NCBI GenBank assembly: GCA_018992685.1
Contig: JACVGT010000039.1
Span: forward strand, 1-38,237
Length of the DNA: 38,237 nucleotides
Direction: 5' to 3'
Source: Theionarchaea archaeon
GTDB taxonomy: Archaea > Methanobacteriota_B > Thermococci > Methanofastidiosales > SZ-28-30
Translations under genes and position numbers: made by a program
Shown: positions 5,552 to 32,237 of the stretch, one piece after another
Position numbering within the stretch: the stretch's first letter is position 1
Layout: each line of letters starts with the position of its first letter
The notes under the pieces: generated by a model
What the model saw: only the letters and a program-made list of their open reading frames with translations
Databases searched by the model: none
Told to the model about the DNA's origin: nothing

Positions 5552-6775
5552 TCATCTCGCTCTCCTCCTGACTGACAACCCTACCAACACAGCACCTGCA
5601 ATAAGTCCTGTTCCCAGGCAGAATCCTTTCTTCGCTTCCTGGATCTCCTGAACCCATGCATCACACTCAGCGACCTTCCGAGATCCATGCTCCAGATAGA
5701 TGTCCCTTGCTTTCTGAAAATACTCCAGAGCCTTCTCATAGTCTTCTTTTTCAAAAGCCTTTTGACCCTGTTCAAAGAGTGAATCTGCCGTTCGGACCTC
5801 CCTGACTACCTGAAGATTGCAGCCAAAGAGATTGATCTCGCGGTTCTTGTTAGAAGCTCTAAGGACCACCGTATCTCCATAGATTACTGGATTATATCCT
5901 CCAGAAATCCAGAATTCTTCTTTAGTCAGAAGGTCATATGCATGGATATCTGAATCATATTCATGAGGGGATTCAAAGACAACAATATTCCCGAATAGCT
6001 GCGGCAGCCTTTGATTGGCAGGTTCTACGATGAGAGGTAAGTCTTCCCCCGTCGATAAATCGTATCCATAAATATCGCAATCATTACTCCGACATTCACT
6101 CCATAACACAATCTGTCCAAAAATTGTAGGTTCGAATCGATACTGGGTATCTCTCGTCATCTGAAACTCTTCATTTCTGGAAAGATCAAACCCAAAAATA
6201 TCCCACGGGCCATTTCTATCATCTCCCCATACGACAATTGTCCCATAGATTGCAGGGTCTACTTGGTTGTGAGGATTGCCTGCTATTTGAAATTCCTCTC
6301 TTTCTGCAAGGTTGTACCCATAGATATCGGGCGTGCCGTTTCTATCATCTTCCCATACCACAATATCCCCATAGACAGCAGGGGACCGTTGGGCTTGTGG
6401 GTCATCAGTTATCTGGAATTCCTCTCTTTTTGCAAGGTTGTACCCGTAGATATCGAAATTGCCGTCTCTCTGATCCTGCCAGACCACGATGGTTCCATGA
6501 ACTGCTGGATTTCCCTGCCAGTTAGGATCATCAGTTATCTGGAATTCCTCTTTTGTTGCAAGGTTGTACCCATAGATATCAGTATTTACAGGAGAGATGC
6601 TTTTGGGATCCTGATTCCTCCAGTCTTCCCATACCACAATATCCCCGTACATGGCCGGTGCCACCTGCTTTTCCGGGTTATCTGTAATCTGGAATATGCC
6701 TGTGTCATCTGAGGGGATAAACTGCATCAACATGAGAAATACAATGATTGCTCCTAGCCTATCATAAGATATCAC
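5552..6775 (-). CDS. Secreted DIYGYDLST-repeat beta-propeller protein with C-terminal anchor (paralog)
   Basis: 407 aa starting at GTG 6775, with AGGTGAGA 5-10 nt upstream. Residues 1-24 are a signal peptide. About seven propeller repeats follow (AVYGDIVVWEDDRNGTPDI, YGYNLAxREEFQIT), then a helical pair (KAFEKEDYEKALEYFQKAR) and a C-terminal membrane anchor ending SVRRRAR. It is the tandem paralog of the 4112-5329 gene. Their last ~80 residues are nearly identical while several blades differ more, which fits duplication with later gene conversion. It is probably an extracellular, membrane-tethered propeller; the ligand is unknown. Confidence 0.85.
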   Translation of the reverse strand: MISYDRLGAIIVFLMLMQFIPSDDTGIFQITDNPEKQVAPAMYGDIVVWEDWRNQDPKSISPVNTDIYGYNLATKEEFQITDDPNWQGNPAVHGTIVVWQDQRDGNFDIYGYNLAKREEFQITDDPQAQRSPAVYGDIVVWEDDRNGTPDIYGYNLAEREEFQIAGNPHNQVDPAIYGTIVVWGDDRNGPWDIFGFDLSRNEEFQMTRDTQYRFEPTIFGQIVLWSECRSNDCDIYGYDLSTGEDLPLIVEPANQRLPQLFGNIVVFESPHEYDSDIHAYDLLTKEEFWISGGYNPVIYGDTVVLRASNKNREINLFGCNLQVVREVRTADSLFEQGQKAFEKEDYEKALEYFQKARDIYLEHGSRKVAECDAWVQEIQEAKKGFCLGTGLIAGAVLVGLSVRRRAR

Positions 6776-8855: not shown

Positions 8856-11528
8856 ATGAAAGAAAAAAAGGTTACACTTCTCGTCCTGGCAATGTTGTTG
8901 AGTTTGGCCCTTCCTGCAGCTTTTTCTGAGAAGAGTGCATTCACTGTTGACTACACCTTCGAGCCAGTCAAGGCTGATGGGTGCCAGGGATGTGGCTTCT
9001 GGACAATCGAAGACACTCGAGTGTTGAATGAACCAGGAGCTCCGCTGATACCCTACAGGATGGGTACCATTCTTCTCCCCCAGGGCACAGAACTGAAGGA
9101 TGTCAAGGTACGGCATACGAAGCCCCTTGTTCAGTCTGGATTTGATCTTCCGTGGGGCCAGCCACCCTGCACATTCAGTGACAATCCCATGACTGTTGGC
9201 AAGAATGAAGGAATCTATGGCACAGATACTCCATATCCTGGCAAAACACTTGAGATCGTGGGCATCCAGTACTGCAGAGGATTCGCGCTCCTCTATATTC
9301 ACTTGTTCCCAGTCCAGTATATGCCCGAATCTGGATCAGTGAAATTCTATCCGAACCTGACTGTGGATATTCAATTCACCACGGGCAAAAAGAACAACCT
9401 GTACAGAGGACTGGCTTCTGACAAAGCAGCTGTGATGGACATGGTGGATAATCCCGAAGTCGTTGAAACATACGAAGATGGACCGTTCCCCCTGGCTTCT
9501 GAAGAGTACATTATTATTACCAGCGACACCATGCAGTCAACGTTCCAGACATTAGCCACCTATAAGATGGGATACGTGAATGGAGCTTCTGTCTATACAG
9601 TCTCCTGGATCATAGCCAACTACTCCGGGGTAGACAATGCAGAGAAAATCAGAAACTTCATCATTGATAAGTATACCAATAACGGTACCAAGTATGTCCT
9701 GCTGGGCGGAGACATCTCTGCTGTTCCATACAGAGGATTTTATGTGTCGACTGGTGGATACACTGATTATGACATGCTGGCCGACATGTATTTTGCCCAC
9801 TTGGATGGTTCCCACAATGAAGATGGTGACAGCTACTGGGGCGAGACTCATGACAGTGTCGACTTCGCTGCAGAGATTGCTGTTGGCAGAGCACCCTGTG
9901 AGACAGTAACGGAAGCTTCGAATTTTGTCAACAAGGTCATAGCACATGACCAGGCAGAAAAGCCCAATAAGGTACTGTTCCACCAGTCCAGAGTACAGTC
10001 TGGCAACACGCCTGACTCCAGATGCCTGGCCTGGAACTGTGCTCAATGGCTGCCTGACTACTATGACATGGAGTATCTCTTTGAGGAGGTAGATGGCGTG
10101 ACCAAGCAAGAGTGGATCGATGCGTGGGCAGCCGGCCCAGTTTCAGTAGTCCACATTGGCCACGGAAATTCTGAGGTCTACTACATCAACCTCGAAAAGG
10201 ATGTTGGCACAGTCAGCTGGTACGGCTCAGATGTGGCTGCGATGACCAACACGTTCTGGCCTTGGACCACAAGCGTCGCCTGCATCTGTGGACAGATCGA
10301 GTACAATGACTGCCTGGCAGAACAATATGTCAAGGACCCTGACAACGGAGCTATTGCAGCCATTTATAATGACAACTATGGCTGGTTCAACACGATTAAT
10401 GCATGCATGTACTCTGGCGAATTCTGCGAAATGGAGTTCAGAGCCTGTTGGAGCGACGGGGAAGGAAGAGCTGGTGATATGCTGAACAAGGCACGAAGCT
10501 ATCTGGCGTCGTCAGCACAGACGGACTCGACCTACCGGTGGTGCCACTATGAGAGGAATATTGTAGGAGATCCTCATATACGCGTGAAAAATGGTACCTC
10601 GGAGTCACCTCCTCCAGAAGGGAGTATTCAAATTACCACGCCCACTGCTGGATCAGAAGTTTCAGGTCTCGTCACAATCAAGATTTCCTCGACAGGATGT
10701 GTCAGCCTTGTGACGGGCTTGATTACCTATCAAGGGGTGCAAGTGCTCGCTGATGAATATGATCTTCTTCCTATAAACGGCCCGCCATTCATGTATTCGT
10801 GGGACACGCTTGAGCGAGACAATATGGGGGCGTTCAAGTACGAGAATGGAAGATACAAGATTTCAGTGAATGGATACTGTCCCAACTACTCCTCAGTTGT
10901 ATGTTCTAACAGTATTGAGGTCATTCTGAAGAACTACAGCGTCTGGCTGATCAGCCCGTCAGAGGGGGAAATCATCTCAGGTACGATCACGGTGGATGTG
11001 GATACTCTGGGAATGGACATGGTTGAGTTTTACATTGATGGGACCTTGAGGTCCACAGACACAGATGCACCCTTCCAGTTCAGTTGGGATACTACCCATG
11101 ATTCTGATGGTACTCACACTGTTGAGGTGAAAGGTTACTGCGAGGGATTGTTCAAAGATAGTTTCACTGTCACTGTCACCGTGGAGAATTACACCGACTA
11201 CTATGTAACTATTACAAATCCTTCAGAGGGTCAAACTGTCTCTGGAACTGTGAACATTACCACAACCACCAACTGCGAGGAAGTGCGGTTTTATGTCGAC
11301 GGCACCCTGGTGAGGGTTGATACAGCATCGCCATTTGACTACACCTGGGACACCACTGGATACTCTGATGGAACCCACACGATATTGGCTGAGGGATACA
11401 TTGGTGGCATGTTTATGGCTGAGGACTCCGTTGTATGCACGGTCAACAACAGTGGAGAGTGTCTCGGAACGATCCTGGTTGCCTTGCTCTTGCTACTAGG
11501 TGCTGCAGGAACCTGGAGAACACGGTGA
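8856..11528 (+). CDS. Secreted gingipain-family (peptidase C25) cysteine protease with Ig-like repeats
   Basis: 890 aa, with an excellent ribosome-binding site (AGAAGGAGGT) 7 nt before the ATG. Residues 1-25 are a signal peptide. Residues ~30-205 match the propeptide/N-terminal part of C25 proteins (RMGTILLPQGTELKDV). The catalytic domain spans ~210-570: VVHIGHGNSE holds the catalytic His436 of the GHG motif, and SVACICGQ holds the likely nucleophile Cys476, followed by DCLAEQY, as in gingipains. Three Ig-like repeats start near 589, 693 and 781 (xxITxPSEGxxVSGTVxI ... VxFYVDGTL ... WDTTxxSDGTHT). A C-terminal membrane helix (~870-886) ends in TWRTR. It should cleave proteins at the cell surface. 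It is a single gene, followed by a T-rich terminator. Confidence 0.9.
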   Translation: MKEKKVTLLVLAMLLSLALPAAFSEKSAFTVDYTFEPVKADGCQGCGFWTIEDTRVLNEPGAPLIPYRMGTILLPQGTELKDVKVRHTKPLVQSGFDLPWGQPPCTFSDNPMTVGKNEGIYGTDTPYPGKTLEIVGIQYCRGFALLYIHLFPVQYMPESGSVKFYPNLTVDIQFTTGKKNNLYRGLASDKAAVMDMVDNPEVVETYEDGPFPLASEEYIIITSDTMQSTFQTLATYKMGYVNGASVYTVSWIIANYSGVDNAEKIRNFIIDKYTNNGTKYVLLGGDISAVPYRGFYVSTGGYTDYDMLADMYFAHLDGSHNEDGDSYWGETHDSVDFAAEIAVGRAPCETVTEASNFVNKVIAHDQAEKPNKVLFHQSRVQSGNTPDSRCLAWNCAQWLPDYYDMEYLFEEVDGVTKQEWIDAWAAGPVSVVHIGHGNSEVYYINLEKDVGTVSWYGSDVAAMTNTFWPWTTSVACICGQIEYNDCLAEQYVKDPDNGAIAAIYNDNYGWFNTINACMYSGEFCEMEFRACWSDGEGRAGDMLNKARSYLASSAQTDSTYRWCHYERNIVGDPHIRVKNGTSESPPPEGSIQITTPTAGSEVSGLVTIKISSTGCVSLVTGLITYQGVQVLADEYDLLPINGPPFMYSWDTLERDNMGAFKYENGRYKISVNGYCPNYSSVVCSNSIEVILKNYSVWLISPSEGEIISGTITVDVDTLGMDMVEFYIDGTLRSTDTDAPFQFSWDTTHDSDGTHTVEVKGYCEGLFKDSFTVTVTVENYTDYYVTITNPSEGQTVSGTVNITTTTNCEEVRFYVDGTLVRVDTASPFDYTWDTTGYSDGTHTILAEGYIGGMFMAEDSVVCTVNNSGECLGTILVALLLLLGAAGTWRTR

Positions 11529-11787: not shown

Positions 11788-12645
11788 TCAGGAAGTACTC
11801 TCTTCAAGACTCAGTTTTCGATATCTCATTCGCCTCTGGTCATACCTCATGGGGTGTTCACAGCGGAATTCGAATACTATGTCATGCGGAATCTGTTCTG
11901 AGAACCAAGGCGCATAAAAGTCCCAATCACCGTCCACCTGGTTAGCACCTGTTGCAGTAACGTCTACCATGTAAGCTTCTCTATAATAAGTCCATGCTTT
12001 CCGATAATAGTCCATGGCTGCTTCAGAATTGCCCGCTTTCTGGTAGATGTAGCCAATCTCTTCATGCAGCCAGGCTCTTTCTATGGAATGGAGAGATTCT
12101 TTCTCAGGACCAATTCTTTCCCACGCTTCAAGAGCTTTTTGATTGTATGTTCGAGCTTCCCTCATGTTGTGAGCCTTCTCCCAGAAATCAGAAGCATATT
12201 GGAATAGTTGAGGCTGGAAGTATGTGCTTTCATCGGCCTCCTTCGAATGTTCCGCGGCCAATTCTGTATAAAGGGATTGGGCTAGGGTATGGTCCCCAAT
12301 TCCTTGGTAAACTCTGGCCAGCCAACGTTTAGTTGGGTAGGGATTGTTCAGAGCAGTTTCTCGTGCTTCTTCTTTTCTTCCGAGTGCAATCAAGCAATTC
12401 ACACGAATATGGATCCATGGATATTTAGATTGCTCTTCATATTCCAGCGTTTTCCTATACTGGGACTGTGCTTTCTCTCTTTCTCCCAGAAGCCTGTAGA
12501 TACGGGCAACATCAAAACTGTAGAACGTAACTGTAGAAAAATCCTTTCTCTCAAGTTCTTGTTGCAGTCTGGAGCAAGATTTATGTAAGAGCCTCTTGAG
12601 TTCTCGTCTTGTGAAGAGTGCTTCTGCTATTTTGGAGTATTCCAT
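11788..12645 (-). CDS. TPR-like helical-repeat protein, copy C of a tandem family
   Basis: 285 aa from ATG 12645, start MEYSKIAEALFTRRELKRLL. Repeated helical pairs of TPR character follow, for example IYRLLGEREKAQSQYRKTLE, then LARVYQGIGDHTLAQSLYTE and IGYIYQKAGNSEAAMDYYRK. The conserved C-terminal block is DGDWDFYAPWFSEQIPHDIV, then RRMRYRKLS. There is no signal peptide or membrane helix, so it is predicted cytoplasmic. It lies 11 bp after an orphan copy of the 568-aa protein's C-terminal domain (12657-12908). It is the third of three paralogs whose start codons are each 1470 bp apart. Its C-terminus (EESTS) differs from the other two. Its role is unknown; the context suggests a partner, perhaps immunity, of the adjacent domain. 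Confidence 0.75.
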   Translation of the reverse strand: MEYSKIAEALFTRRELKRLLHKSCSRLQQELERKDFSTVTFYSFDVARIYRLLGEREKAQSQYRKTLEYEEQSKYPWIHIRVNCLIALGRKEEARETALNNPYPTKRWLARVYQGIGDHTLAQSLYTELAAEHSKEADESTYFQPQLFQYASDFWEKAHNMREARTYNQKALEAWERIGPEKESLHSIERAWLHEEIGYIYQKAGNSEAAMDYYRKAWTYYREAYMVDVTATGANQVDGDWDFYAPWFSEQIPHDIVFEFRCEHPMRYDQRRMRYRKLSLEESTS

Positions 12646-12656
12646 TGTATCATCTC

Positions 12657-12908
12657 TTAATACGTACTGATCAGTTTGAATCCTTCACATAGCCATTTGC
12701 CAATGATAGTGGAGTATTCTTCCTTGGTTGTATCGTACATGTAGGGTGAATGACAATCCGCTCTGTATGCTGTTCTCAGTTCGCAAAATTCTCTAGAGTT
12801 TTTCCTTATAAATACTTCCCACTCCTTTCCCGCACTATCGAAGAAATGACATTGGTGAAATCTATGAAGTGAGGGACAAGTGGTCTTTTCCCCCACCCGT
12901 TTGCCCAC
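12657..12908 (-). pseudogene. Orphan C-terminal domain of the 568-aa protein (copy C)
   Basis: 83 codons from a GTG at 12908 without a good ribosome-binding site. Residues ~24-83 align with residues ~508-568 of the protein at 15597-17303: DSAGKEWEVFIRKN, LRTAYRADC and GKWLCEGFKLISTY correspond to DDAGKEWAVFIEKY, LISAYRVDC and AKWLCEKFRQISIY. The signal peptide, helical region and membrane part are all missing, as is the first strand of the domain. The frame is preserved despite many substitutions. It is either a silent or expressible orphan cassette, or a decaying duplicate. Confidence 0.6.
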
Positions 12909-12946
12909 CGAATTCGGAGTTTGTCAAGGAGAGAAGACAATATTCT

Positions 12947-13249
12947 TCAGGGACAAGAGCTTCTACTGAGGATCAGCATTGTGTCTAATCTTCTCTTGCA
13001 GCATGAGAATCTGTATTGTAGTCGCTTCGAGTCAGACTTCCATAGCCGCTCAAACCCAAAGTCAATCATGTGCAATTCTGGAAGCTGCATGTGGAACCAC
13101 TGTGCATAAAAATCCCGATCACCATCTACCTGATGAGCACCAATGGCAGTAGAATCTTCTGTACAGGCTTTTCTATACGTGATCTTGGCCTTTTGATAGT
13201 ATTTCATGGCAACTTCAAACTGTACAATGGTCAGGAAAGGCTGTCCCAT
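12947..13249 (-). pseudogene. C-terminal fragment of a divergent TPR-family copy
   Basis: The minus-strand frame encodes FEVAMKYYQKAKITYRKACT, then HQVDGDRDFYAQWF and a tail like that of the TPR proteins (compare EAAMDYYRKAWTYY ... NQVDGDWDFYAPWF). The first two thirds of the gene are absent. Its 5' end overlaps the 3' end of TPR copy B by 19 nt. It lies between TPR copy B and orphan tail C in the 1470-bp repeat unit. Confidence 0.6.
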
Positions 13250-14115
13250 GATCCATCAGGGTCTTCACTCTTTCTAGTACTGAGCTTCCGATATCTCATT
13301 CGCCTCTGGTCATACCTCATGGGGTGTTCACAGCGGAATTCGAATACTATGTCATGTGGAATCTGTTCTAAGAACCAAGGCGCATAGAAATCCCAATCAC
13401 CATCGAATAGATGATCCACTGTGGCCTCTAAATCCTCTGTATAAGCTTCTTTGTAATAGACCCATGCCTTCCGATAATAGTCCATGGCTGCTTCAAAATT
13501 GCCCGCTTTCTGGTAGATGTAACCAACCTCTTCGTGCAGCCAGGCTCTTTCTATGGGACGGAGAGACTCTTTCTCAGGACCAATTCTTTCCCAAACTTCA
13601 ACTGCTTTTTGATTGTATGTTCGAGCTTCCTTCATATTGCCAGCTTTTTCCCAAAAGTCAGAAGCATATTGGAATAGTTGTGGCCGAAAGTATGTGCTCT
13701 CATCAGCTTCTCTTGACTGTCCTGTTGCCAATTCCGTATAGAAATCTTGGGCAAGATCATAGTCTCCAAGTTCCTCATACAGATGTGCCAACAGGTTTTT
13801 CGTCGGATAAGGATCGTTCAAGACAACTTCTCGTGCTTCTTCTTTTCTTCCGAGTGCAATCAAGCATTTTCTCCTTATCTCCCTCCATTGATGTTTCGAT
13901 TGTTCAATGTATTCCAGCGTTTTTTCGCACTGGGACTGTGCCTTCTCTGGTTCTCCTAAGAACTGGTAAAGGCGGACTATATCAAAACTATAAAACGTAG
14001 CTATTGAGAAGTCTTTTCTCTCAAGTTCTTGCTGGAGTTCGGAGCAAGACTTCTGCAAGAGCCTCTTGAGTTCTCGTTTTGTGAAAAGCGCCTCTACTAT
14101 TTCGGAATATTCCAC
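13231..14115 (-). CDS. TPR-like helical-repeat protein, copy B of a tandem family
   Basis: 294 aa from GTG 14115. That codon aligns with the ATG of copies A and C (VEYSEIVEALFTKRELKRLL) and has the same upstream AAGGTGAC box as copy A. The frame is open to 14208, but those extra 31 codons read the orphan tail in a wrong phase. The TPR-like helices match copy A closely (IVRLYQFLGEPEKAQSQCEK, then LAHLYEELGDYDLAQDFYTE and VGYIYQKAGNFEAAMDYYRK). The C-terminal block DGDWDFYAPWFLEQIPHDIV and the tail KSEDPDGSWDSLS follow. It is cytoplasmic, without a signal peptide. It follows orphan tail B by about 11 bp. Confidence 0.75.
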   Translation of the reverse strand: MEYSEIVEALFTKRELKRLLQKSCSELQQELERKDFSIATFYSFDIVRLYQFLGEPEKAQSQCEKTLEYIEQSKHQWREIRRKCLIALGRKEEAREVVLNDPYPTKNLLAHLYEELGDYDLAQDFYTELATGQSREADESTYFRPQLFQYASDFWEKAGNMKEARTYNQKAVEVWERIGPEKESLRPIERAWLHEEVGYIYQKAGNFEAAMDYYRKAWVYYKEAYTEDLEATVDHLFDGDWDFYAPWFLEQIPHDIVFEFRCEHPMRYDQRRMRYRKLSTRKSEDPDGSWDSLS

Positions 14116-14126
14116 AACGTCACCTT

Positions 14127-14363
14127 CTAGTACATGCTGATTTGCTTGAATTTTTCGTACAGCCATTTTGCAATGATTGTAAGACGGTTGCTTCCGTCTT
14201 CTCTGCACTTATACGGTGGGGGGCAATCCACTCTGTACGCTGTTCTCAGTTGATAAAACTCTTCAAAGTATTTCCTTATAAGCACTGCCCATTCCTTTCC
14301 TGCACTATCGATGAAGTGACATCGGTGAAATCTATGAAGTGAACAACAAGTGAATTTTTTCCG
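14127..14363 (-). pseudogene. Orphan C-terminal domain of the 568-aa protein (copy B)
   Basis: The frame open from 14363 to TAG 14127 encodes IDSAGKEWAVLIRKYFEEFY, LRTAYRVDCPPPYKCREDGS and LTIIAKWLYEKFKQISMY, very close to the end of the 568-aa protein. No start codon lies at its head: relative to copy C a 1-nt length change puts the corresponding GTG out of frame. The domain itself is intact in frame. The TPR copy B start lies 11 bp downstream, exactly as the full-length gene precedes TPR copy A. Confidence 0.6.
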
Positions 14364-14391
14364 TTATCCATCTACCCACCGAACTTAGAGT

Positions 14392-14719
14392 ATGTCAAGG
14401 AGAGAAGACAATATTCTTCAGGGACAAGACCCTCTACTGAGGATCAGCATTGTGTCTAATTTTCCCTTTCAGTATGAGAATTCTGTATTGCAGTCGCTTC
14501 GAGTTAAACTCCTATGGCCGCTCATACCCAAAGTCGATCATGTGCAATTCTGGAAGCTGCATATGGAACCACTGTGCATAGGCGTCAATCACCATCTACC
14601 TGATGAGCACCAGTGGCAGTAGGATCTTCTGTACAGGCTCTTCTATACGTGATCCTGGTCTTTTGATAGTATTTCATGACAACTTCAAACTGTACAACGG
14701 TCAGGAAACGCTGTCCCAT
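14392..14719 (-). pseudogene. Frameshifted C-terminal fragment of a divergent TPR-family copy
   Basis: The minus-strand frame from ATG 14719 reads FEVVMKYYQKTRITYRRACT, then HQVDGD, and hits TGA at 14587-14585. The sister fragment at 12947-13249 continues DRDFYAQWF. The downstream similarity resumes in another phase (CAQWFHMQLPELHMIDFGYE-like), so an indel has broken it. The fragment's start overlaps the end of TPR copy A. It belongs to the second 1470-bp unit. Confidence 0.55.
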
Positions 14720-15585
14720 GATCCATCAGTGTCTTCACTCTTTCTAGTACTGAGCTTCCGATATCTCATCCGTCTCTGATCATACCTCATTGGATGTTCA
14801 CAACGGAATTCGAACACAATGCCATACGGAATCTGTTCTGAGAACCAAGGCGCATAGAAATCCCAATCACCATCAAATTGATTAGCGCCAGTTGCAGTAA
14901 CATCTATCATGTAAGCATCTCTGTAGTAGGCCCAGGCTTTTCGATAATAGTCCATGGCTGTTTCAGAATCGCCCGCTTTCTGGTAGATATAGCCAATCTC
15001 CTCATGCAACCAGGCTTTTTCTATTGAAATGTGAGATTCTTCCCCGGATCTGACTTTTTCCCACGCTTCAACTGCCTTTTGATTGTATATTCTAGATTCC
15101 CTCATATTACTAGCCTTTTCCCAGAAATCAGAAGCATACTGGAACAGTTGAGGCTGGAAGTTCGTGCTCTCATCGGCCTCCTTCGAATGTTCCGCGGCCA
15201 ATTCTGCATAGTAAGTCTGAGCAAGATCATGGTCTTCAAGTTCCTCATATAGGTACGCGAAAAGTCTTTTGGTCGGATAAGGATCGCTTAAAACGATCTC
15301 TTGTGCTTCTTCTTTTTTTCCAAGAGCAATTAGGCATTTTCTCCATATCCCCCTCCATTGATGTCTCGATTGCTTAATGTATTCCAGCGTTTTTTCGCAC
15401 TGGGACTGTGCCTTCTCTGGTTCTCCTAAGAACTGGTAAATGCGAACCATGTCAAAACTATAAAACGTGGCAATCGAGAGATCCTTTTTTTCAAGTTCTT
15501 GCTGGAGTCTGCAGTAGGACTTCTGTAAGAGCCTTTCAAGTTCTCGTTTTGTGAATAGTGCTTCTACTATTTCAGAATATTCCAT
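14701..15585 (-). CDS. TPR-like helical-repeat protein, copy A, directly downstream of the 568-aa membrane protein
   Basis: 294 aa from ATG 15585, with AAGGTGAC 3-10 nt upstream and only 11 bp after the stop of the 568-aa gene, so they form an operon. It contains repeated TPR-like helix pairs (MVRIYQFLGEPEKAQSQCEK, LFAYLYEELEDHDLAQTYYA and IGYIYQKAGDSETAMDYYRK) and a conserved end (DGDWDFYAPWFSEQIPYGIV, RRMRYRKLS). There is no signal peptide. Copies B and C repeat it at 1470-bp intervals. TPR-type scaffolds bind peptides or partner proteins. The fixed pairing with the neighbour's C-terminal domain suggests the two proteins interact, but this is inference. Confidence 0.78.
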   Translation of the reverse strand: MEYSEIVEALFTKRELERLLQKSYCRLQQELEKKDLSIATFYSFDMVRIYQFLGEPEKAQSQCEKTLEYIKQSRHQWRGIWRKCLIALGKKEEAQEIVLSDPYPTKRLFAYLYEELEDHDLAQTYYAELAAEHSKEADESTNFQPQLFQYASDFWEKASNMRESRIYNQKAVEAWEKVRSGEESHISIEKAWLHEEIGYIYQKAGDSETAMDYYRKAWAYYRDAYMIDVTATGANQFDGDWDFYAPWFSEQIPYGIVFEFRCEHPMRYDQRRMRYRKLSTRKSEDTDGSWDSVS

Positions 15586-15596
15586 AATGTCACCTT

Positions 15597-17303
15597 CTAG
15601 TAGATACTAATTTGCCTGAATTTTTCGCACAGCCATTTTGCAATGATTGTAAGACGGTTGCTTCCGTCTTCTCTGCACTTATACGGTGGAGGGCAATCCA
15701 CTCTGTACGCTGATATGAGTTGATAAAAGCCCTTATAGTATTTTTCTATGAATACTGCCCATTCCTTTCCTGCATCATCAACGTAGTAGTAGATGTATCG
15801 CCCCGTTTTTGCATTGTAGAACAGCTTCGATGCTCGTTCTATAATTTCCTGAATCATATGCTTATCATCAAGTATGGCTTGGTGACTGCTCGCTACACAC
15901 TCCTTTGTTGACTGTGCCCTCTGCGGAATGTGTGCCTGTCCATATGAACCTTCCACAACGATAACTACCTGTTTCCCGTCAATCCAGCCAGGGACTGCTG
16001 GTGGCCATTCGTATCCGACAGAAGGAGCAGTGACAACTAACAGGAAGACTGCTCCCACCACTCCAACAGCTATGGAAAGTACGGTCACGCATGCATCCAG
16101 GATGGCATAAAGAATGGCCAAGATATCTGGAAGAGTCAAAGTCCACCCGATTTCACCGAGTTCTGTATACACAAACATTGGAAGCATCACCAAGAGCTCC
16201 ATAAAGCTGAGATCTGGCTTCTTCACAAAAACGAGAGCAACCCCCAGATTGTTTGTCTCATCCAGTTCTTCCACATCACCCACAAAATCACCTAGTGGGC
16301 TGGCCGTGTACGCGGAAGCACTCTCTTCTGGCACCTGAAGAGCAGAGTATGACCGTATGTCAGATAGTGAACACTCTCTCAGAGCATCCGTATACACCTC
16401 AATCTCGGAGATCCCCAGGGCTGTGTCACCATTCAAAGCGGTGAGGGCTCCGCAGTGTATCTGCAGCCCAATAAAGAAATCTGCCATATATTCTGCTTCT
16501 CCTTTCCGGAGTTCCTGCTCTGCTGCCTTGTACACCTCTTTGGAGAATGCCTTGACATGTTCCAACGAGGGCTGGCTTTCAGACATTGCCTGAATGGCCT
16601 CAACCAGCTTTTCTTCAGCATTCTGAAGTCTTGGCCCATCATCCTTTTTCTTTCCTTTTCCCGGGGTTTCCTCTAATAAGAGCTTTAATGCAGCTATGGA
16701 TAACGTCGTCTGGATATCCAGTAACTCTGTCTGCTGCTCTTTTACCACCTGTGATGCAGTATGGAGCGTGGAATAGTGACCTACCAGAATGTCCTGGAGC
16801 TCCGAGATCTGGTCATCTGTGAATCCTGCCTGGTAGAGGCGGTCCCGTTCCTCAGGGGCAAATCCTCTGACTGCATAGTTGTGAAAATCATTGAAAGTGG
16901 CTAACCACTCTATGATCTCAGCTATATCCTCATCTGTATATCCGAGATCAGTCAAAGATTCCTTCCGGCTGTCAGATAACCCCATGAGGAGAATGATTTC
17001 CAGGTGGTTCTGGAGACTCACCTGTAGGGCATCATGGATATCCTGGGAAGCATTCTGCGCTTTTCCTATCTGGAGGGCAGTAGTCTCAATTGCCTGCAGT
17101 GTATGCTGATAGACGGCCTGCGTATTCTTTCCCTGCTGCAATTCCATGTATAAGAGGGTCACATCTTTCTGGAGAGAATAGAGGTCCTCGCGGTATTCTC
17201 TATACACGGGGAAATCAGTGTCTTCACAATCTCCAGGAAGAGCAGGATTGTTACAGAATGCCAGGATGAGTATGAGAGTCAGAGAGAGTGCTGCAGCCTT
17301 CAT
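15597..17303 (-). CDS. Secreted/membrane helical protein with a C-terminal domain that is reduplicated downstream
   Basis: 568 aa, overlapping the upstream gene by ATGA. Residues 1-22 are a signal peptide. Residues ~35-210 are helical, with two similar helix-turn segments (LGYTDEDIAEIIEWL at 120-134, AGFTDDQISELQDIL at 159-173). Lys/Asp-rich linker ~214-224 and another helical region to ~320 follow. Residues 344-364 (VEELDETNNLGV ... KKPDL) look like a CARDB-domain edge. Hydrophobic segments lie at ~367-382 and ~391-426. The C-terminal ~70 residues (YIYYYVDDAGKEWAVFIEKY ... LISAYRVDC ... WLCEKF) resemble the strand pattern of RelE/barnase-like (BECR-type) nuclease domains, which is only a fold-level impression. 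Orphan copies of this domain occur at 14127-14363 and 12657-12908. Overall function is unknown; an effector or toxin role is possible. Confidence 0.72.
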   Translation of the reverse strand: MKAAALSLTLILILAFCNNPALPGDCEDTDFPVYREYREDLYSLQKDVTLLYMELQQGKNTQAVYQHTLQAIETTALQIGKAQNASQDIHDALQVSLQNHLEIILLMGLSDSRKESLTDLGYTDEDIAEIIEWLATFNDFHNYAVRGFAPEERDRLYQAGFTDDQISELQDILVGHYSTLHTASQVVKEQQTELLDIQTTLSIAALKLLLEETPGKGKKKDDGPRLQNAEEKLVEAIQAMSESQPSLEHVKAFSKEVYKAAEQELRKGEAEYMADFFIGLQIHCGALTALNGDTALGISEIEVYTDALRECSLSDIRSYSALQVPEESASAYTASPLGDFVGDVEELDETNNLGVALVFVKKPDLSFMELLVMLPMFVYTELGEIGWTLTLPDILAILYAILDACVTVLSIAVGVVGAVFLLVVTAPSVGYEWPPAVPGWIDGKQVVIVVEGSYGQAHIPQRAQSTKECVASSHQAILDDKHMIQEIIERASKLFYNAKTGRYIYYYVDDAGKEWAVFIEKYYKGFYQLISAYRVDCPPPYKCREDGSNRLTIIAKWLCEKFRQISIY

Positions 17304-19015
17304 AACAGCCCCTCCGGAGGATCAGCGATTGCCTGGATGATGTACCCTCCAGAATAGAGGGGAATCCAGGTGTATGTGATGGTGATACTCTCGTCTCTTG
17401 GTAATACTTCAATAAACACTCTGTGGACCACCTCGTCATCAATGAGGAGGATAACCCAGAAGTCCTCAGCATCGGCCTTTCCCTCATTTCTGACGGTCAC
17501 TGAGATTATGACCTCTTCCTTGATGTTGGGGCTCGCGGGATTCAGGGAAATATCTTCATTCAGTATGACGAGATCGGGCAATGCTTTGTGGGTTACAGCA
17601 AAGCTCCCATCAAAGAGCGCTTTGTAACACGTGCCTTCTCCTTCAACGATTATGACTCCACACACAGAGTACAATCCAGAAGAAGAGGGCGTATACTCAG
17701 CAGAATAGGTGCCGTCCTCATTATCCACCCAGGAGAGTGGGGTATAGGTGTCATCTGGGAGGTACAGGAGTGACGTAACCTCCCCACCTGAGAGGAGTTC
17801 TCCCTGTTCACTGAAAACTGTCAGCAGAAAGTCTACGGGCTCATCCAGGAAAGATTCTCCAATTTTAAGGATTGCAAAGGCGTTCTCGCAGTCCCTGACG
17901 TAAAAGGTTCCTCCTGCTTCCTCTAAGTAACACGAATCTGTGGAAATGTCTGCCGTAATGGAGTAGGACCCCTCATGTTCTGGCAGGTAAGACGCAGAAT
18001 AGATCCCTGGGGCACTGGAAGTCCACTCTAAATCTATAATCTCAGAGCCATCAGGTAAAGAGAGCACGCTGGCTATTTCCCCATCCAGCGGTTGGCCTCC
18101 CTCATCAGCAGCTGTAACGGTGACATGCACGCACTCTCCCAGGTCATACTCAGGAATGTCCTTGTCAAATTCCAAAGCCAGAGTGGCGTGATAGCACACA
18201 CCAAACGTGGTGGATGCCTGGACATCTTCATAGAATCGTTTCTTCACATAGACATGTGCTGTATATTGGCCTTCCTTTGGATCAGCCTGGACGCCCTGGT
18301 CATTGGTGAAATCCCACATGTAATAGTGACATTCCATTGCAGGGTTCCAGGACCAGTCTTCTGGCGTAATTGTTTTCTTTGTGGAATCGGGTAGCGCAAT
18401 ATCTCCTTTGATGCTGTCAGCCTGGATGTAGTCTCCTGTCTCTTCATCTGTTACCTGCAGGACTACCCGTGCAAAGGAGTCCCCACTTGAGTACTTTGGT
18501 TTGTTGGTCTTGAGATCAGCATGCATGTGGTGAGCACCTGTTCCATCATCGGGGAAGTACCACAAGGTGTTGTCTCCAACCAGGAAGGAGGGAGAAGTGA
18601 CCACATACTTTCCAGGTGGTATATAGGTGAGGGGTACATCTTCAATATTGAAATCAGGGTTCCAGGGCTGGACATACACCAGTTCTGCCGTATACAAAAT
18701 CGGAATGTTTTCAGTACAATTTTCAGGGCAATCATAATCGGGATAGGAACGGAAATTAAGGACACCCCCGATCTGCTGCTCATTGCTGATCCCAAATACC
18801 CAGAGAGGACGTCCAAAGACATAGACTGAAGGTACCCATTCCTCATAACGGCACATGTATCCTGAGGGGCACTCCTCACATTCATGGACGTGCCAGTGCT
18901 CTGGCATGGAGATGTGCCACTCCCTGGGTGTACCATAGGGAAGGGATTCAACATTATGGGAAGATGCAAGAGCAGCAATCAATATGAGAAACAGGAAGAT
19001 ATATCCTTTTTTCAT
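17300..19015 (-). CDS. Secreted multi-Ig/CARDB-type surface protein
   Basis: The frame is open from 19078, but ATG 19015 fits best. It is preceded by GGGAG 8 nt upstream and starts a clear signal peptide (MKKGYIFLFLILIAALASS). This gives 571 aa. After a Cys-rich N-terminal segment (ECEECPSGYMCRYEEW, CPENC) come beta-sandwich domains with the pattern YxADxITxTVxxxDG, each with a GIYSASYLPEHEGSYSI-like strand. Residues ~475-570 form a CARDB domain (LPDLVILNEDISLNPASPNI, then VRNEGKADAEDFWV). It ends abruptly at AIADPPEGLL, before the usual ETNN edge. The stop overlaps the start of the 568-aa gene (ATGA), so translation is coupled. It probably lies extracellularly as an adhesion or binding partner of that protein. 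A TATA-like TTTATATGG lies at ~19150-19159 on the minus strand. Confidence 0.78.
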   Translation of the reverse strand: MKKGYIFLFLILIAALASSHNVESLPYGTPREWHISMPEHWHVHECEECPSGYMCRYEEWVPSVYVFGRPLWVFGISNEQQIGGVLNFRSYPDYDCPENCTENIPILYTAELVYVQPWNPDFNIEDVPLTYIPPGKYVVTSPSFLVGDNTLWYFPDDGTGAHHMHADLKTNKPKYSSGDSFARVVLQVTDEETGDYIQADSIKGDIALPDSTKKTITPEDWSWNPAMECHYYMWDFTNDQGVQADPKEGQYTAHVYVKKRFYEDVQASTTFGVCYHATLALEFDKDIPEYDLGECVHVTVTAADEGGQPLDGEIASVLSLPDGSEIIDLEWTSSAPGIYSASYLPEHEGSYSITADISTDSCYLEEAGGTFYVRDCENAFAILKIGESFLDEPVDFLLTVFSEQGELLSGGEVTSLLYLPDDTYTPLSWVDNEDGTYSAEYTPSSSGLYSVCGVIIVEGEGTCYKALFDGSFAVTHKALPDLVILNEDISLNPASPNIKEEVIISVTVRNEGKADAEDFWVILLIDDEVVHRVFIEVLPRDESITITYTWIPLYSGGYIIQAIADPPEGLL

Positions 19016-19253
19016 CTTTTCATCTCCCAGCCTCCTGTAAAGGTAGTATGATCCACAAAAAAATCGGAAAAAGCGCATTTCAATATCTTGATTTTATCCA
19101 CCACGTAGATGTCCATTGTTCCACCTCTCCCCTGAGGATTACCTGATCCATATAAATGTATCGGGTTAGAAATGAATTATCCACCGTAAAGAACAGTGAG
19201 ACAGGTTCCTTTTCCACTGCAACAGAGCATGACCCCCTGGCTGAAAGTGATTA

Positions 19254-22200
19254 ATTTCAATCCTAACATAGTCTGATTTCAACACTGTCGAAAATAATGA
19301 CAATCCAGAAGATTTCGAACTTTCAATCCTAACATAGTCTGATTTCAACTGATGTAGGCTGTTGCGAAATGGTTACTGAAACTTATCTTTCAATCCTAAC
19401 ATAGTCTGATTTCAACAGCTCCCTTATCGTATGTCATGTCATCACCAGACAACTTTCAATCCTAACATAGTCTGATTTCAACATTCACACTGCAACAGAT
19501 ACACGATGAGATTCAGAGCTTTCAATCCTAACATAGTCTGATTTCAACAATTAGGAAATGTATTAAATAATGCGCAGGATGAACTCTTTCAATCCTAACA
19601 TAGTCTGATTTCAACCTGACTGCCATTGATATGGGAGACCAGCGAGCACCTTTCAATCCTAACATAGTCTGATTTCAACAATACCATTTGAGGTGGGTTA
19701 AATGGCATCAGTTAACTTTCAATCCTAACATAGTCTGATTTCAACCCCCCTGGCGGTTTATCTTGGATTTTCTTCACTTTTCCTTTCAATCCTAACATAG
19801 TCTGATTTCAACAAAAAAGAAGGATATGATGGCGAACGGTGTGCAGACTTTCAATCCTAACATAGTCTGATTTCAACACACAAAACTATGTCCCAGATGC
19901 CCTAATTTCATCTGCCTTTCAATCCTAACATAGTCTGATTTCAACTTTCAACGTCACCCTCTGCAAAAATGTAGTCCTGCCTTTCAATCCTAACATAGTC
20001 TGATTTCAACACTTGATGGAACAAAGCACAAAGCAATCAATCGCAGACTTTCAATCCTAACATAGTCTGATTTCAACTGTTCAGTTTCATCGATATATCA
20101 AAGAAGATAGAAGCTTTCAATCCTAACATAGTCTGATTTCAACCACGCTTCAACAGGTAATAAACGACACTGAATCTTCCTTTCAATCCTAACATAGTCT
20201 GATTTCAACTGTCTGACAGTCATGGTTGTTGCATTCTTCGTTATGCTTTCAATCCTAACATAGTCTGATTTCAACAATTTCTTGAATTTCTCAATCCTGG
20301 TAACTATGATTCTTTCAATCCTAACATAGTCTGATTTCAACGATCTACGGTTTGACGTCCTGATGAACGCCTATTTCCCTTTCAATCCTAACATAGTCTG
20401 ATTTCAACGATCTACGGTTTGACGTCCTGATGAACGCCTATTTCCCTTTCAATCCTAACATAGTCTGATTTCAACGATGGATAACGCAATGCAACTAGAT
20501 AGACAAAACGGACCATCTGCTTTCAATCCTAACATAGTCTGATTTCAACCGGCGATGTACCACGATGGCGATATTTACAATCCAACTTTCAATCCTAACA
20601 TAGTCTGATTTCAACTCTATTATACACATGACACTAGATTTTGTAGCAGACTTTCAATCCTAACATAGTCTGATTTCAACTCTGTACAGTTTTTGATATA
20701 CTATTTATAAACTTTGCTTTCAATCCTAACATAGTCTGATTTCAACTTCTCCACAGGTACAATAACACGAAACAAAGAAGACCTTTCAATCCTAACATAG
20801 TCTGATTTCAACGGAGGAGTGAGAACATGACCATAAAGGAGATATACGCTTTCAATCCTAACATAGTCTGATTTCAACCTTTGAAGTAGCCTTGAATATT
20901 GCTCTTGAAGACCCTTTCAATCCTAACATAGTCTGATTTCAACAGGGAAAAAAGGTGATCTTCCCGGTAAATGAACCAACTTTCAATCCTAACATAGTCT
21001 GATTTCAACCTTGAAGCTCCTGCAGTCCCGTTCTTGCTGTTTCTTCTTTCAATCCTAACATAGTCTGATTTCAACTCGAAAAAGCGCGTCAGAAACAGAA
21101 AGGTTATAGACTTTCAATCCTAACATAGTCTGATTTCAACGTCGAATACCATTTTAAATCTATGTTACAGATTTGCTTTCAATCCTAACATAGTCTGATT
21201 TCAACTTTCCACGTTTTGGCTTCTAATTTTGCTGTGAACATCTTTCAATCCTAACATAGTCTGATTTCAACGATATACAGTCTCAGAAGATGATTTATGC
21301 CAGATTTCTTTCAATCCTAACATAGTCTGATTTCAACTCTGTACAACACCTTCTTTATCCTTGAAAACGAGACCCTTTCAATCCTAACATAGTCTGATTT
21401 CAACCCTTGCTGATAACGATAATTTGTCTTCCCATCCAATCTTTCAATCCTAACATAGTCTGATTTCAACGTATTTCAGAGATTAAAGAAGAACTGCAGG
21501 AGATTACTTTCAATCCTAACATAGTCTGATTTCAACTAATACATCTTTAAATCCTGTAAATCTTTCTTCTTTCTTTCAATCCTAACATAGTCTGATTTCA
21601 ACCTAATGTGGGAATCCAGAAGAGTGACCACAGCACCCTTTCAATCCTAACATAGTCTGATTTCAACTTATTCTTTTTTTGGTGGGAATGGGAATATTTA
21701 TATCTTTCAATCCTAACATAGTCTGATTTCAACTGTAACCTGTTCTGCTTGTGCGCTCTTTCTGAGCACTTTCAATCCTAACATAGTCTGATTTCAACAC
21801 TTTATCACCTCCTATTCCAGTCTTATGAATCCACTTTCAATCCTAACATAGTCTGATTTCAACCAGTTCATGAAACAATTCGGCCCAGTGCGTGACCCTT
21901 TCAATCCTAACATAGTCTGATTTCAACTCGGGGGGCACGGCTGGACTGGGCGAACCTGACAGCTTTCAATCCTAACATAGTCTGATTTCAACATATCCTC
22001 CCATCCCGCATAAGCGAGCATATCATCGCTTTCAATCCTAACATAGTCTGATTTCAACCTCGCATTAGATCTACTTCCCCTCCTCTCTTACACCTTTCAA
22101 TCCTAACATAGTCTGATTTCAACATCAGCTTGTCAAAACTGAGAATGAACAGCTTGTAGCCTTTCAATCCTAACATAGTCTGATTTCAACAATTGGTCTC

Positions 22201-23107: not shown

Positions 23108-23365
23108 AATATTAGTAGGCTCAACCTTGGGTTCTCCAATGAACCTCCGATTTACCAGCGCCTCATCTCTCACCGTGTAGATAATAACCGAATCTTCTTT
23201 CTTCTCAATAATCTCTTCAACTCCGAGTTCGATCTCTTTCAACCGTGCCTTTGTCACTTCACCCTCCAGTACTGAATTCTGCATCCAATTCAAGTACTGT
23301 TTTAGAAAGATACGCACCTTGTCTACTCTCTCCACACTCACATCATACACGACAATGACATACAC
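23102..23365 (-). CDS. cas2: CRISPR adaptation endoribonuclease-like protein Cas2
   Basis: Cas2 dimerises between two Cas1 dimers and holds the prespacer during integration. The frame opens at GTG 23374. I prefer GTG 23365, which gives 87 aa beginning MYVIVVYDVSVERVDKVRIF, the classic Cas2 first strand with its conserved Asp. The cas1 stop overlaps this GTG by one base (TAGTG), the same coupling as between cas4 and cas1 (TGATG). The C-terminal SVIIYTVRDE strand also fits. The stop TGA lies inside the 127-bp leader of array 1. Confidence 0.95.
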   Translation of the reverse strand: MYVIVVYDVSVERVDKVRIFLKQYLNWMQNSVLEGEVTKARLKEIELGVEEIIEKKEDSVIIYTVRDEALVNRRFIGEPKVEPTNIL

Positions 23366-24339
23366 TACCACCACATCCTGAATGCCTTGTACGTCTGCAC
23401 GCCCAGAAAATGCTTTATCAACTTATAACACTCCAGTCGAATCAGCCTCTGATAAGAAACGTTCCGCCCCAGACTCCTGTGCTTCACGGTAGTTTTCAGT
23501 CTCTGGTCAAAATGACTCAAGAACACTTTCTTCCCTTCCTCATTCAGTAAACAGTTGTTCACGTCTTTGCGGAAATGGTCCTCTGTAATAATGCCCTTGT
23601 TCAAGACCTTGAAAATCACTCTGTCCCCGAGAAAAGGCTTGAAGACTTCACTCAAGTCCAGGCTTAGCGAGAACCGTCTTTCAAAGGGTTCGTGCAGGAA
23701 GCTCACACTGGGGTGCAATTGAGTATTATAGATCTCTGACAACGTTGCAGAGTACACCAGTGCGTTGCTAAAACTGATAAGACAGTTCACCATATTCTCT
23801 GGAGGTTGTCGTGTCCTCTTCTCAAACCGGAAATTCTCAGGCAATATCCTGTCAAAACACTGGTAGTACAGTCCCCTGATATTCCCTTCAATACTCATCA
23901 ACTGGGGAATACTCCCGGCATCAGGCACTTTTTCTGACCAGTCTTCAACCTGCCCAACTGTGTCTTCCAGATCGTAGTACCTCAGATTCCTTACAATGTT
24001 GTCAAACCCTCCCGAGAGTAGTTCCTTTGCCAGGTCTAGTCTTTTCTCACTGTCGAGATAGTGGGCTGCCTGCCTTACCACGATGTCTCCTGAAACCAGA
24101 GATTCTCGTGGATAGAACGACCCCTCAAAGAACCCATAGTGGTTGAAAAAGTGGATGCACACCCCATTCTTTGCCAGGTACGACAAGACACCAGAAGTCA
24201 CAGAAACTCTTCCATATACAAAAATCGTGTGAATTTTGTGTATGGGAAGCAGGAATTTCCTTTCCCTGCTCACAAAGTATACCGTGTTCTCTTTCCTCAT
24301 CAATTTCCCATCCTTTACCAAGTAAAAATTTACTTTCAT
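23365..24339 (-). CDS. cas1: CRISPR integrase Cas1 (type I-B)
   Basis: Cas1 inserts prespacers at the leader-repeat junction with Cas2. The frame opens at 24354, but ATG 24339 (MKVNFYLVKDGKLMRKENTV) overlaps the cas4 stop as TGATG and gives 324 aa, a normal length. The beta-rich N-terminal domain contains FVYGRVSVTSGVLSYLAKNG. The metal-binding residues of the catalytic domain are visible: Glu151 in MSIEGNIR, His216 in SFLHEPFERR and Asp228 in SLDLSEVFKP. It is the middle gene of the cas4-cas1-cas2 adaptation operon. Confidence 0.97.
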   Translation of the reverse strand: MKVNFYLVKDGKLMRKENTVYFVSRERKFLLPIHKIHTIFVYGRVSVTSGVLSYLAKNGVCIHFFNHYGFFEGSFYPRESLVSGDIVVRQAAHYLDSEKRLDLAKELLSGGFDNIVRNLRYYDLEDTVGQVEDWSEKVPDAGSIPQLMSIEGNIRGLYYQCFDRILPENFRFEKRTRQPPENMVNCLISFSNALVYSATLSEIYNTQLHPSVSFLHEPFERRFSLSLDLSEVFKPFLGDRVIFKVLNKGIITEDHFRKDVNNCLLNEEGKKVFLSHFDQRLKTTVKHRSLGRNVSYQRLIRLECYKLIKHFLGVQTYKAFRMWW

Positions 24340-24842
24340 CACATCACCCAGCACAATTCATAGTAACTGCATTTCTTGCAGTAAGGTTTTTTCTCAGGGG
24401 ACGGGGGAGTTCCTGCAGAGACAACCTGTACAATATCTTTGAGAATACCTTCAATCTCTTCTTCCTGAGAGCTTTCCAAAACGATTTTCTCTCTCTTTCG
24501 AAGAAGGGGATAGTTTATTACCCCTGTGGCTACTATCCCTTTCTGTTTCAGGTAGTACAGGTAGTACAGCAATTGGTAGATGTGTGATTTTTCCATTTTT
24601 CTGGAACGTTTTACTTCGTGGAGAACTACCCCTTTCCCCTCTTCTATGAAATCAACATTTATTGGTCCAATTCTCATTTCCTTTTCCCTCTTGTAACTGG
24701 TCTGATGCAGCAGCTTCCCCATGAACACTGCATCACTGGTATGTTCCATTGCAGAGTAGTGAGAGAATAACCACAACTTGCTCTTACAAATGAAGTAGTA
24801 GTTCACCTGCACCCCCGTTATTGTAGATTCCTTGGTAAGCAT
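24339..24842 (-). CDS. cas4: CRISPR-associated exonuclease Cas4
   Basis: A RecB-like Fe-S nuclease that trims prespacers and helps select PAM and orientation. The frame opens at 24875, but ATG 24842 (MLTKESTITGVQVNYYFICK) gives the usual Cas4 N-terminus and 167 aa. Visible are the first cluster Cys (YYFICKSKLWLFS), the RecB-type active site (NVDFIEEGKGVVLHEVKRSR, then QLLYYLYYLK) and the three C-terminal Cys (YCKKCSYYELC). A TATA box at 24864-24872 is about 26 bp before this ATG, so cas4-cas1-cas2 probably have their own promoter with little or no leader. Confidence 0.95.
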   Translation of the reverse strand: MLTKESTITGVQVNYYFICKSKLWLFSHYSAMEHTSDAVFMGKLLHQTSYKREKEMRIGPINVDFIEEGKGVVLHEVKRSRKMEKSHIYQLLYYLYYLKQKGIVATGVINYPLLRKREKIVLESSQEEEIEGILKDIVQVVSAGTPPSPEKKPYCKKCSYYELCWVM

Positions 24843-24863
24843 TAGTTCCTCTTTGTAGCAATG

Positions 24864-24872
24864 ATATAAATA
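24864..24872 (-). promoter_or_regulatory. TATA box for the cas4-cas1-cas2 operon
   Basis: TATTTATAT on the minus strand is centred about 26 bp before the preferred cas4 start (24842), in the 81-bp gap after cas3. This spacing would start transcription at or next to the ATG. Confidence 0.5.
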
Positions 24873-24923
24873 CATTTCCTTTGGAGAGACAAATACTTAA
24901 AATCAGAGTGGGGAGAGCAAAAC

Positions 24924-27497: not shown

Positions 27498-27509
27498 AAG
27501 AACCTTTTG

Positions 27510-28334: not shown

Positions 28335-28335
28335 G

Positions 28336-28992: not shown

Positions 28993-28996
28993 AGGA

Positions 28997-32204: not shown

Positions 32205-32237
32205 TCCATCAACTTGCAAGGAAATGAGGATAAGAAC

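What the first reader, a model, noticed from the sequence alone, without database searches (positions are those of the whole stretch)
11788..17303. Tandem orphan-cassette array: a secreted protein's C-terminal domain plus a TPR gene repeated three times at exactly 1470-bp spacing
The full-length 568-aa protein is followed by TPR copy A. Then come orphan copies of only its C-terminal domain (14127-14363, 12657-12908), each followed ~11 bp later by TPR copies B and C. The three TPR starts are at 15585, 14115 and 12645. The frames of the domain and of the TPR genes are kept despite divergence. This is the layout of polymorphic toxins with orphan toxin/immunity cassettes (as in CDI and Rhs loci). 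The C-terminal domain has a strand pattern loosely like RelE/barnase-type RNases. If correct, this is an archaeal secreted effector with swappable tips and TPR-type immunity proteins, not a type I can name.
Basis: partly seen in the sequence, partly recalled or inferred. Interest (0 to 1): 0.75.

Follow-up and report, generated by a model that had tools for sequence, protein, structure and literature searches.

The report
Archaeal nuclease-tipped protein with triplicated partner
A little-studied archaeon carries a surface protein whose tail may be an RNA-cutting toxin, and the gene next to it, possibly the antidote, has been copied three times together with short, probably silent scraps of the toxin gene.

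Summary
The array is real: a 1470-bp unit occurs three times on the minus strand (11788-15791). All three TPR genes are intact and strongly constrained (omega 0.16-0.22). The "orphan domains" are smaller than claimed. Each is a 62-codon fragment starting in mid-domain (residue 507 of 568). Copy B has no start codon before that fragment. The fragments diverge like neighbouring spacer, and neutrality is not rejected between them (omega 0.50, p=0.07). Each TPR except the last is followed by a decayed third of another TPR gene. The array is a gene-conversion mosaic, including one tract between the full-length tail and orphan B.

The window is from Theionarchaea. Homologues occur only in one congeneric genome. 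There, a whole but start-less tail domain plus two TPR genes sits at a defence hot spot, while the full-length gene lies elsewhere, without a TPR, with a changed tail. AlphaFold gives a helix-plus-four-strand fold for the tail; the best PDB match is the RNase toxin BrnT (Z 5.2 and 4.4, weak). The tail is basic and its TPR neighbours acidic.

Best reading: a polymorphic-toxin-like RNase tip with TPR immunity, amplified for the immunity genes, with silent tail passengers. Swappable tips are not shown.

The parts
17300..19078 (-). Surface protein with filamin/invasin-like and CARDB Ig-fold domains, 592 aa; its stop overlaps the start of the next gene
   Evidence: Pfam CARDB 3e-13, Filamin 4.2e-10; same gene order in G001
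15597..17303 (-). Full-length 568-aa protein: signal-peptide-like N-terminus, helical region, hydrophobic stretch, C-terminal domain
   Evidence: ORF; no Pfam/NCBIfam/PADLOC family; homologue in G001 at 37-40%
16014..16124 (-). Probable transmembrane stretch (residues about 394-430)
   Evidence: Kyte-Doolittle mean up to 2.8 over 19 residues
15597..15941 (-). C-terminal domain A (residues about 455-568), predicted helix plus four-strand sheet, basic (+4)
   Evidence: AlphaFold pLDDT 64, core 80-84; BrnT best match Z 5.2; charge
14701..15585 (-). TPR protein A, 294 aa, ATG start 11 bp after tail stop
   Evidence: Pfam TPR_12 2.8e-07; omega 0.16-0.22 against the other copies
14455..14719 (-). 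Degenerate C-terminal third of another TPR gene (frameshift, stops)
   Evidence: profile hits with stops; six-frame view
14127..14315 (-). Orphan tail B, 62 codons homologous to residues 507-568; no start codon upstream of the fragment
14160..14219 (-). Tract in tail B matching tail A (15630-15689) at 30 consecutive polymorphic sites: gene conversion
   Evidence: none of 5000 permutations reached it
13231..14115 (-). TPR protein B, 294 aa, GTG start
12974..13249 (-). TPR C-terminal remnant, frame still open (ORF 12947-13249)
12657..12845 (-). Orphan tail C, 62 homologous codons (possible GTG start at 12908)
11788..12645 (-). TPR protein C, 285 aa; last unit, no remnant after it

Best explanation
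A toxin-immunity-like locus of Theionarchaea. The 568-aa exported or membrane-anchored protein, made in one operon with an Ig-fold surface protein, displays or delivers a C-terminal nuclease-like domain with a BECR-type fold. The acidic cytosolic TPR protein encoded 11 bp downstream binds and neutralises that domain in the producer. Two rounds of 1470-bp tandem duplication, with a breakpoint inside the toxin gene's 3' end, multiplied the TPR (immunity) gene. They carried along 62-codon tail fragments that are mostly silent and serve at most as donors for gene conversion. Shown: the array, constraint on the TPRs, truncation and near-neutrality of the tails, conversion, and location in defence-rich variable regions. 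Inferred: the fold, nuclease activity, delivery, and TPR-tail binding.
For: Unit and spacing. TPR omega 0.16-0.22, p<1e-13. Tail fold helix-strand x4 in two models of different query sequences: best PDB row BrnT both times (Z 5.2, rmsd 3.3, 74 aligned; Z 4.4, rmsd 2.9, 62 aligned), with HigB2, RelE1 and CdiA-CT Kp342 rows below it; two phage 'Nuclease' models at Foldseek probability 0.98 and 0.93. The two complete tails with a TPR downstream (A, G001 C150) are basic (+4) and share SHQAILDD; the G001 full-length tail without TPR is acidic (-3) and lacks that His. TPR A and B are acidic (-13, -15). A separate tail+TPR+TPR module lies in G001 at a site that in G000 holds a UvrD/PD-DEXK/DpdA defence module; the window array lies beside CRISPR-Cas I-B. 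The tail region is among the least conserved parts of the 568-aa protein (0.17 and 0.32, against 0.36-0.55 in the N-terminal 345 residues). CDI orphan toxins also lack start codons while immunity genes are expressed (PMC9086364).
Against: The fold match is weak (Z about 5, pLDDT 64, five-sequence alignment) and no family model hits the tail. No catalytic site is established. The possible transmembrane stretch leaves the side of the membrane on which the tail sits unknown. TPR proteins are general scaffolds and no TPR-tail contact was tested. G001 carries a full-length gene without a TPR next to it. Only two genomes have the family. Charge pairing rests on few sequences, and tail C (-1) and TPR C (-3) lack the contrast.
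Confidence: 0.45

Rival explanations
1. Ordinary segmental tandem duplication. The 568-aa protein is a membrane-anchored surface sensor or adhesion component with a small cytosolic tail, the TPR protein is its scaffold or signalling partner, and the locus expanded for TPR dosage; the tails are dead passengers and nothing is toxic.
For: Tails truncated in mid-domain, no start in B, neutrality not rejected; spacer and tail about equally similar between B and C; hydrophobic stretch before the tail; TPRs are common scaffolds (general knowledge); fold match weak.
Against: Both fold models rank a toxin RNase first; in G001 tail and TPRs occur together away from the full-length gene; both sites are defence-rich and variable.
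Confidence: 0.35
2. One reading: the orphan tails are functional alternative toxin tips, exchanged into the full-length gene, each with its own TPR immunity protein.
For: A-B conversion tract in the tail; tail C keeps all 7 residues invariant in A and the two G001 tails (P about 0.005) while half of all positions differ; tail C and TPR C both differ in charge from the A and B pairs.
Against: B and C lack the first half of the domain; B-C omega 0.50, p=0.07; conversion tracts also occur in the TPR genes, so exchange is not specific to the tip; no genome shows a different tip on an otherwise near-identical body.
Confidence: 0.1
3. The tail fragment is kept because it holds a cis element (promoter, ribosome-binding site or coupling signal) for the TPR gene, not for its protein.
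For: A tail lies upstream of the first TPR gene in every unit; a GGTGA ribosome-binding-like motif overlaps the tail's end in A and B.
Against: In G001 108 bp separate tail and TPR, and the second TPR there has no tail before it; the scan used is for bacterial promoters only; the motif lies just beyond the tail's stop codon and needs only a few bases.
Confidence: 0.1

Closest known systems
CDI / Rhs orphan toxin-immunity modules (polymorphic toxin systems)
   Same: Exported protein with variable C-terminal tip, partner gene directly downstream, repeats of tip fragment plus partner gene behind the main locus, orphan tips without start codons (PMC9086364)
   Different: Copies here are paralogues of one tip, cut in mid-domain, not alternative tips starting at a boundary motif; no CDI, Rhs or other delivery domain; partner is a TPR protein
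BrnT / RelE / HigB-type (BECR) RNase toxins
   Same: Predicted N-terminal helix plus four-strand meander; BrnT best structural match for two models
   Different: No sequence family match; weak Z; domain is the tail of a large exported protein and the partner is not a DNA-binding antitoxin
Homogeneous polyimmunity loci (Zhang et al. 2012, PMC3482391)
   Same: Tandem same-family putative immunity genes in one orientation
   Different: There immunity genes are never interrupted by toxin cassettes; here each copy is preceded by a tail fragment; TPR is listed there as repeats in toxins and fused to immunity domains (passages read), not as a stand-alone immunity family
VARTIG modules of Thermococcales (PMC8416519)
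   Same: Surface Ig/CARDB protein leads a variable island; variable C-terminal part; smaller genes matching the C-terminal part of the large one
   Different: The variable part there is an Ig domain; here a small alpha/beta domain, in Theionarchaea, with TPR neighbours

Membership tests
Polymorphic toxin system (general) | Export signal on the large protein | tested here: met
   Hydrophobic N-terminus, residues 3-23, fits a signal peptide; no dedicated predictor run
Polymorphic toxin system (general) | C-terminal toxin domain of a known family | tested here: inconclusive
   No family hit; weak structural match to BrnT
Polymorphic toxin system (general) | Immunity gene directly downstream | tested here: inconclusive
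   TPR gene 11 bp downstream here and TPR pair after the G001 orphan, but none after the G001 full-length gene; neutralisation not testable here
Polymorphic toxin system (general) | Tip polymorphism between relatives with a conserved body | tested here: inconclusive
   Tail 0.17-0.32 identical against 0.36-0.55 for the N-terminal 345 residues: faster divergence, but homologous, not a swap
CDI (CdiA/CdiB) | TPS secretion domain / CdiB partner | tested here: not met
   No such Pfam or NCBIfam match in the 568-aa protein or its upstream neighbour
CDI-like orphan module | Orphan tips lack translation starts | tested here: met
   B and the G001 orphan have no start in frame before the domain; C has only a possible GTG
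CDI-like orphan module | Orphan carries the complete toxin domain | tested here: not met
   B and C start at residue 507, mid-domain; the G001 orphan is whole
BECR-fold nuclease | N-terminal helix followed by four-strand meander | tested here: inconclusive
   Predicted order fits in both models but pLDDT is 64 and best Z 5.2
BECR-fold nuclease | Catalytic residues / RNase activity | not testable with these tools
   W, V, A, R, D and C conserved in all tails; His of SHQAILDD only in A and G001 orphan; needs an assay
BrnT family | Sequence profile match to BrnT | tested here: not met
   No Pfam hit up to E=10 for any of five tails
TPR proteins | TPR profile above curated cut-off | tested here: met
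   TPR_12 and TPR_8 above cut-off in all three
VARTIG | arCOG07710-type large Ig protein with hypervariable C-terminal Ig domain | not tested
   No arCOG model at hand; the variable part here is not predicted to be an Ig domain

The most novel reading that the evidence does not exclude
A Theionarchaea-specific toxin-immunity system in which an Ig-fold surface protein and a nuclease-tipped partner jointly form one CARDB domain on the cell surface, TPR proteins serve as a new immunity family, and a tandem array of tail fragments plus TPR genes acts as a gene-conversion library that diversifies both tip and immunity.
Probability: 0.15. Interest if true: 0.75.

Novelty: new variant of a known kind. 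Interest (0 to 1): 0.45.

Why it matters
By the accounts read here, polymorphic toxins are rare in archaea, most known immunity families are absent from them (PMC3482391), and archaeal systems had not been tested experimentally as of 2021 (PMC8416519). A tip with a BECR-like fold and a TPR partner would add a new candidate toxin-immunity pair, small enough to test in E. coli. The array also gives a readable case of how such loci duplicate: the putative immunity genes stay constrained while the toxin scraps drift.

Tried and rejected
Assembly artefact: rejected, because the copies differ by roughly 15-40% and carry a degenerate remnant.

Orphan tails as full domain cassettes: rejected for B and C (homology starts at residue 507), kept for the G001 orphan.

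Constraint on orphan tails: B-C omega 0.50, p=0.07. A-C gives p=0.011, but that includes the lineage of the functional gene. Conservation of 7 of 7 independent invariant residues in C (P 0.005) argues the other way but may date from before orphaning, so it was left open.

Searches that found no further relatives: 115 genomes of the phylum (otherwise TPR-generic hits only), GTDB contigs with the 568-aa protein, IMG/VR with the tail, phage records with the tail, PDB sequences. GTDB with the TPR alignment gave only the G001 contig. PHROG hit phrog_35203 at E=0.006 has no known function.

Foldseek against PDB gave no match at E<=0.001 for either model, so the fold claim rests on rank and on repeated toxin rows.

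Rfam found nothing in the window.
Full report
What is there. On the minus strand a 1470-bp unit occurs three times. Unit A is the 3' end of a 568-aa gene (15597-17303) followed by a TPR gene (14701-15585). Units B and C hold a piece of the same 3' end (to 14127 and 12657) followed by TPR genes at 14115 and 12645. Stop-to-start distance is 11 bp each time. All three TPR proteins match Pfam TPR models above the cut-off.

Anatomy in detail. Aligning the units shows that tail homology between A and B/C starts at about residue 507, so B and C hold 62 codons. Upstream of that point B and C share a spacer with each other and not with A. B has no ATG, GTG or TTG in frame before 14285; C has a GTG at 12908. 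Between TPR A and tail B, and between TPR B and tail C, lies a C-terminal third of a further TPR gene, about 40% identical to the intact ones: broken after A, open after B. TPR A and B end in a short extension fused to that remnant; TPR C does not. The simplest history (inference) is a tandem duplication with one breakpoint in the 3' end of the 568-aa gene and the other beyond an old second TPR gene, followed by a second unequal exchange.

Selection. A pairwise codon model gives omega 0.22, 0.16 and 0.21 for the TPR genes, each far from neutral (p<1e-13). For the tails it gives 0.53 (A-B, p=0.19), 0.33 (A-C, p=0.011) and 0.50 (B-C, p=0.07). Only B-C compares two orphans. In the unconverted 5' part of the tails B and C are about as similar (0.80) as in the spacer before it (0.77-0.85). 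Lack of stops is expected with probability 0.08-0.21 under drift. Against pure decay, tail C keeps all seven residues that A and the two G001 tails share (P about 0.005). The TPRs are therefore the clearly selected part; the orphan tails are near-neutral or weakly constrained.

Conversion. Across 1028 ungapped bases the three copies share runs of identical polymorphic sites far longer than permuted data: A-B 30 sites at 15689-15630 (in the tail), A-C 11 sites and B-C 10 sites in the TPR genes. Exchange happens along the whole array, not only at the tip.

Relatives. Within 115 genomes of the phylum, strong homologues occur only in one congeneric genome. A database hit to the same 17302-base contig names it Theionarchaea archaeon SZ_28-30. 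Flanking genes of the two genomes are about 80-94% identical in DNA, but the TPRs are only 30-34% identical between genomes. G001 has (a) the surface-protein gene and the full-length gene on two contigs that overlap by about 95 bases (L019, L018), without a TPR next to them, inserted where G000 contig C19 has only 28 bases between the aligned flanks; and (b) a separate module on contig C150: a tail of about 105 residues without a start codon before the domain, then two TPR genes 68% identical to each other. The corresponding place in G000 holds a UvrD helicase, a PD-(D/E)XK nuclease and DpdA. The window's array lies beside a CRISPR array and CRISPR-Cas I-B genes. Both modules thus sit in variable, defence-rich places.

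What the tail is. No family model matches it. AlphaFold on a five-row alignment gives pLDDT 64, with 80-84 in the core, and the order helix, four strands, helix, strand. Using the G001 orphan as query gives the same core order at similar confidence; the two runs share their alignment rows and are not independent. VIA-align puts BrnT first both times (Z 5.2, rmsd 3.3, 74 aligned; Z 4.4, rmsd 2.9, 62 aligned), and RelE/HigB toxins plus CdiA-CT of K. pneumoniae 342 recur further down. Plain Foldseek finds nothing at E<=0.001, although two phage 'Nuclease' models score probability 0.98 and 0.93. PMC9086364 notes that BECR-type CDI toxins are often recognised by structure alone at 7-17% identity. 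I treat a BECR-like fold as likelier than not, but unproven.

Hints of a pair. Domain A and the G001 orphan are basic (+4) and share the string SHQAILDD within an otherwise 33% identical alignment. The G001 full-length tail, which has no TPR, is acidic (-3) and lacks the His. TPR A and B carry -13 and -15. Tail C (-1) and TPR C (-3) differ from A and B together. These are few data points and only suggest that tail and TPR are matched.

Comparison with known systems. Orphan toxin modules of CDI lack start codons while their immunity genes are expressed (PMC9086364), which fits. They are, however, whole domains of different toxins, which does not fit B and C. Zhang et al. (PMC3482391) describe tandem immunity genes and list TPR repeats within toxins and fused to immunity domains. 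VARTIG of Thermococcales (PMC8416519) shares the Ig-type surface protein in a variable island but not the tail or the TPR. I found no described archaeal system with a TPR immunity array in the papers searched; those searches read titles and abstracts plus selected passages only.

Verdict. A real array. The most likely mechanism is a toxin-immunity pair whose putative immunity gene was amplified, with drifting toxin scraps. A plain surface protein with a duplicated TPR partner is the main alternative.

Noticed in passing
17300-19078 and 15597-17303: The CARDB domain at the end of the 592-aa protein stops at profile position 85 of 101, and residues about 346-365 of the next protein (GDVEELDETNNLGVALVFV) read like its missing last strand; the same split occurs in G001 (L019, L018). 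The two proteins may complete one domain together.
   Followed up: partly
L053:6926-6954 (G000 C19) against L019/L018: Near-empty site: G001 carries about 5.4 kb (surface protein, full-length gene, a reverse-strand beta-propeller gene) where G000 has 28 bases between aligned flanks.
   Followed up: partly
L045:5093-9995 (G000 C4): UvrD helicase, PD-(D/E)XK nuclease and DpdA (7-deazaguanine DNA modification type) at the place where G001 has the tail-TPR-TPR module: a defence hot spot.
   Followed up: partly
8856-11528: C25 (gingipain-type) peptidase with Ig domains, converging on the array; about ten related copies in G001, some on contig ends.
   Followed up: no
4112-5329 and 5552-6775: Two tandem, similar genes for exported proteins with repeated DIYGYDLST-type (propeller-like) motifs, ending in a TPR-like stretch and a C-terminal hydrophobic anchor.
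   Followed up: no
L046:2587-6084 (G000 C16): A 1165-aa paralogue of the 592-aa surface protein (42% over residues 12-387) with a CARDB-like end in one piece and no tail or TPR gene found there.
   Followed up: partly
19244-19945 and 23365-32219: CRISPR array with repeat CTTTCAATCCTAACATAGTCTGATTTCAAC and Cas1b, Cas4b, Cas3b, Cas5b, Cas7b, Cas8b and Cas6 genes; no Cas2 was looked for.
   Followed up: partly
L017:1-83: Contig start in G001 encodes the end of a dockerin-like or EF-hand-like protein (DRNWDGLVQIDEVMVMCASWGEH) directly before the orphan tail.
   Followed up: no
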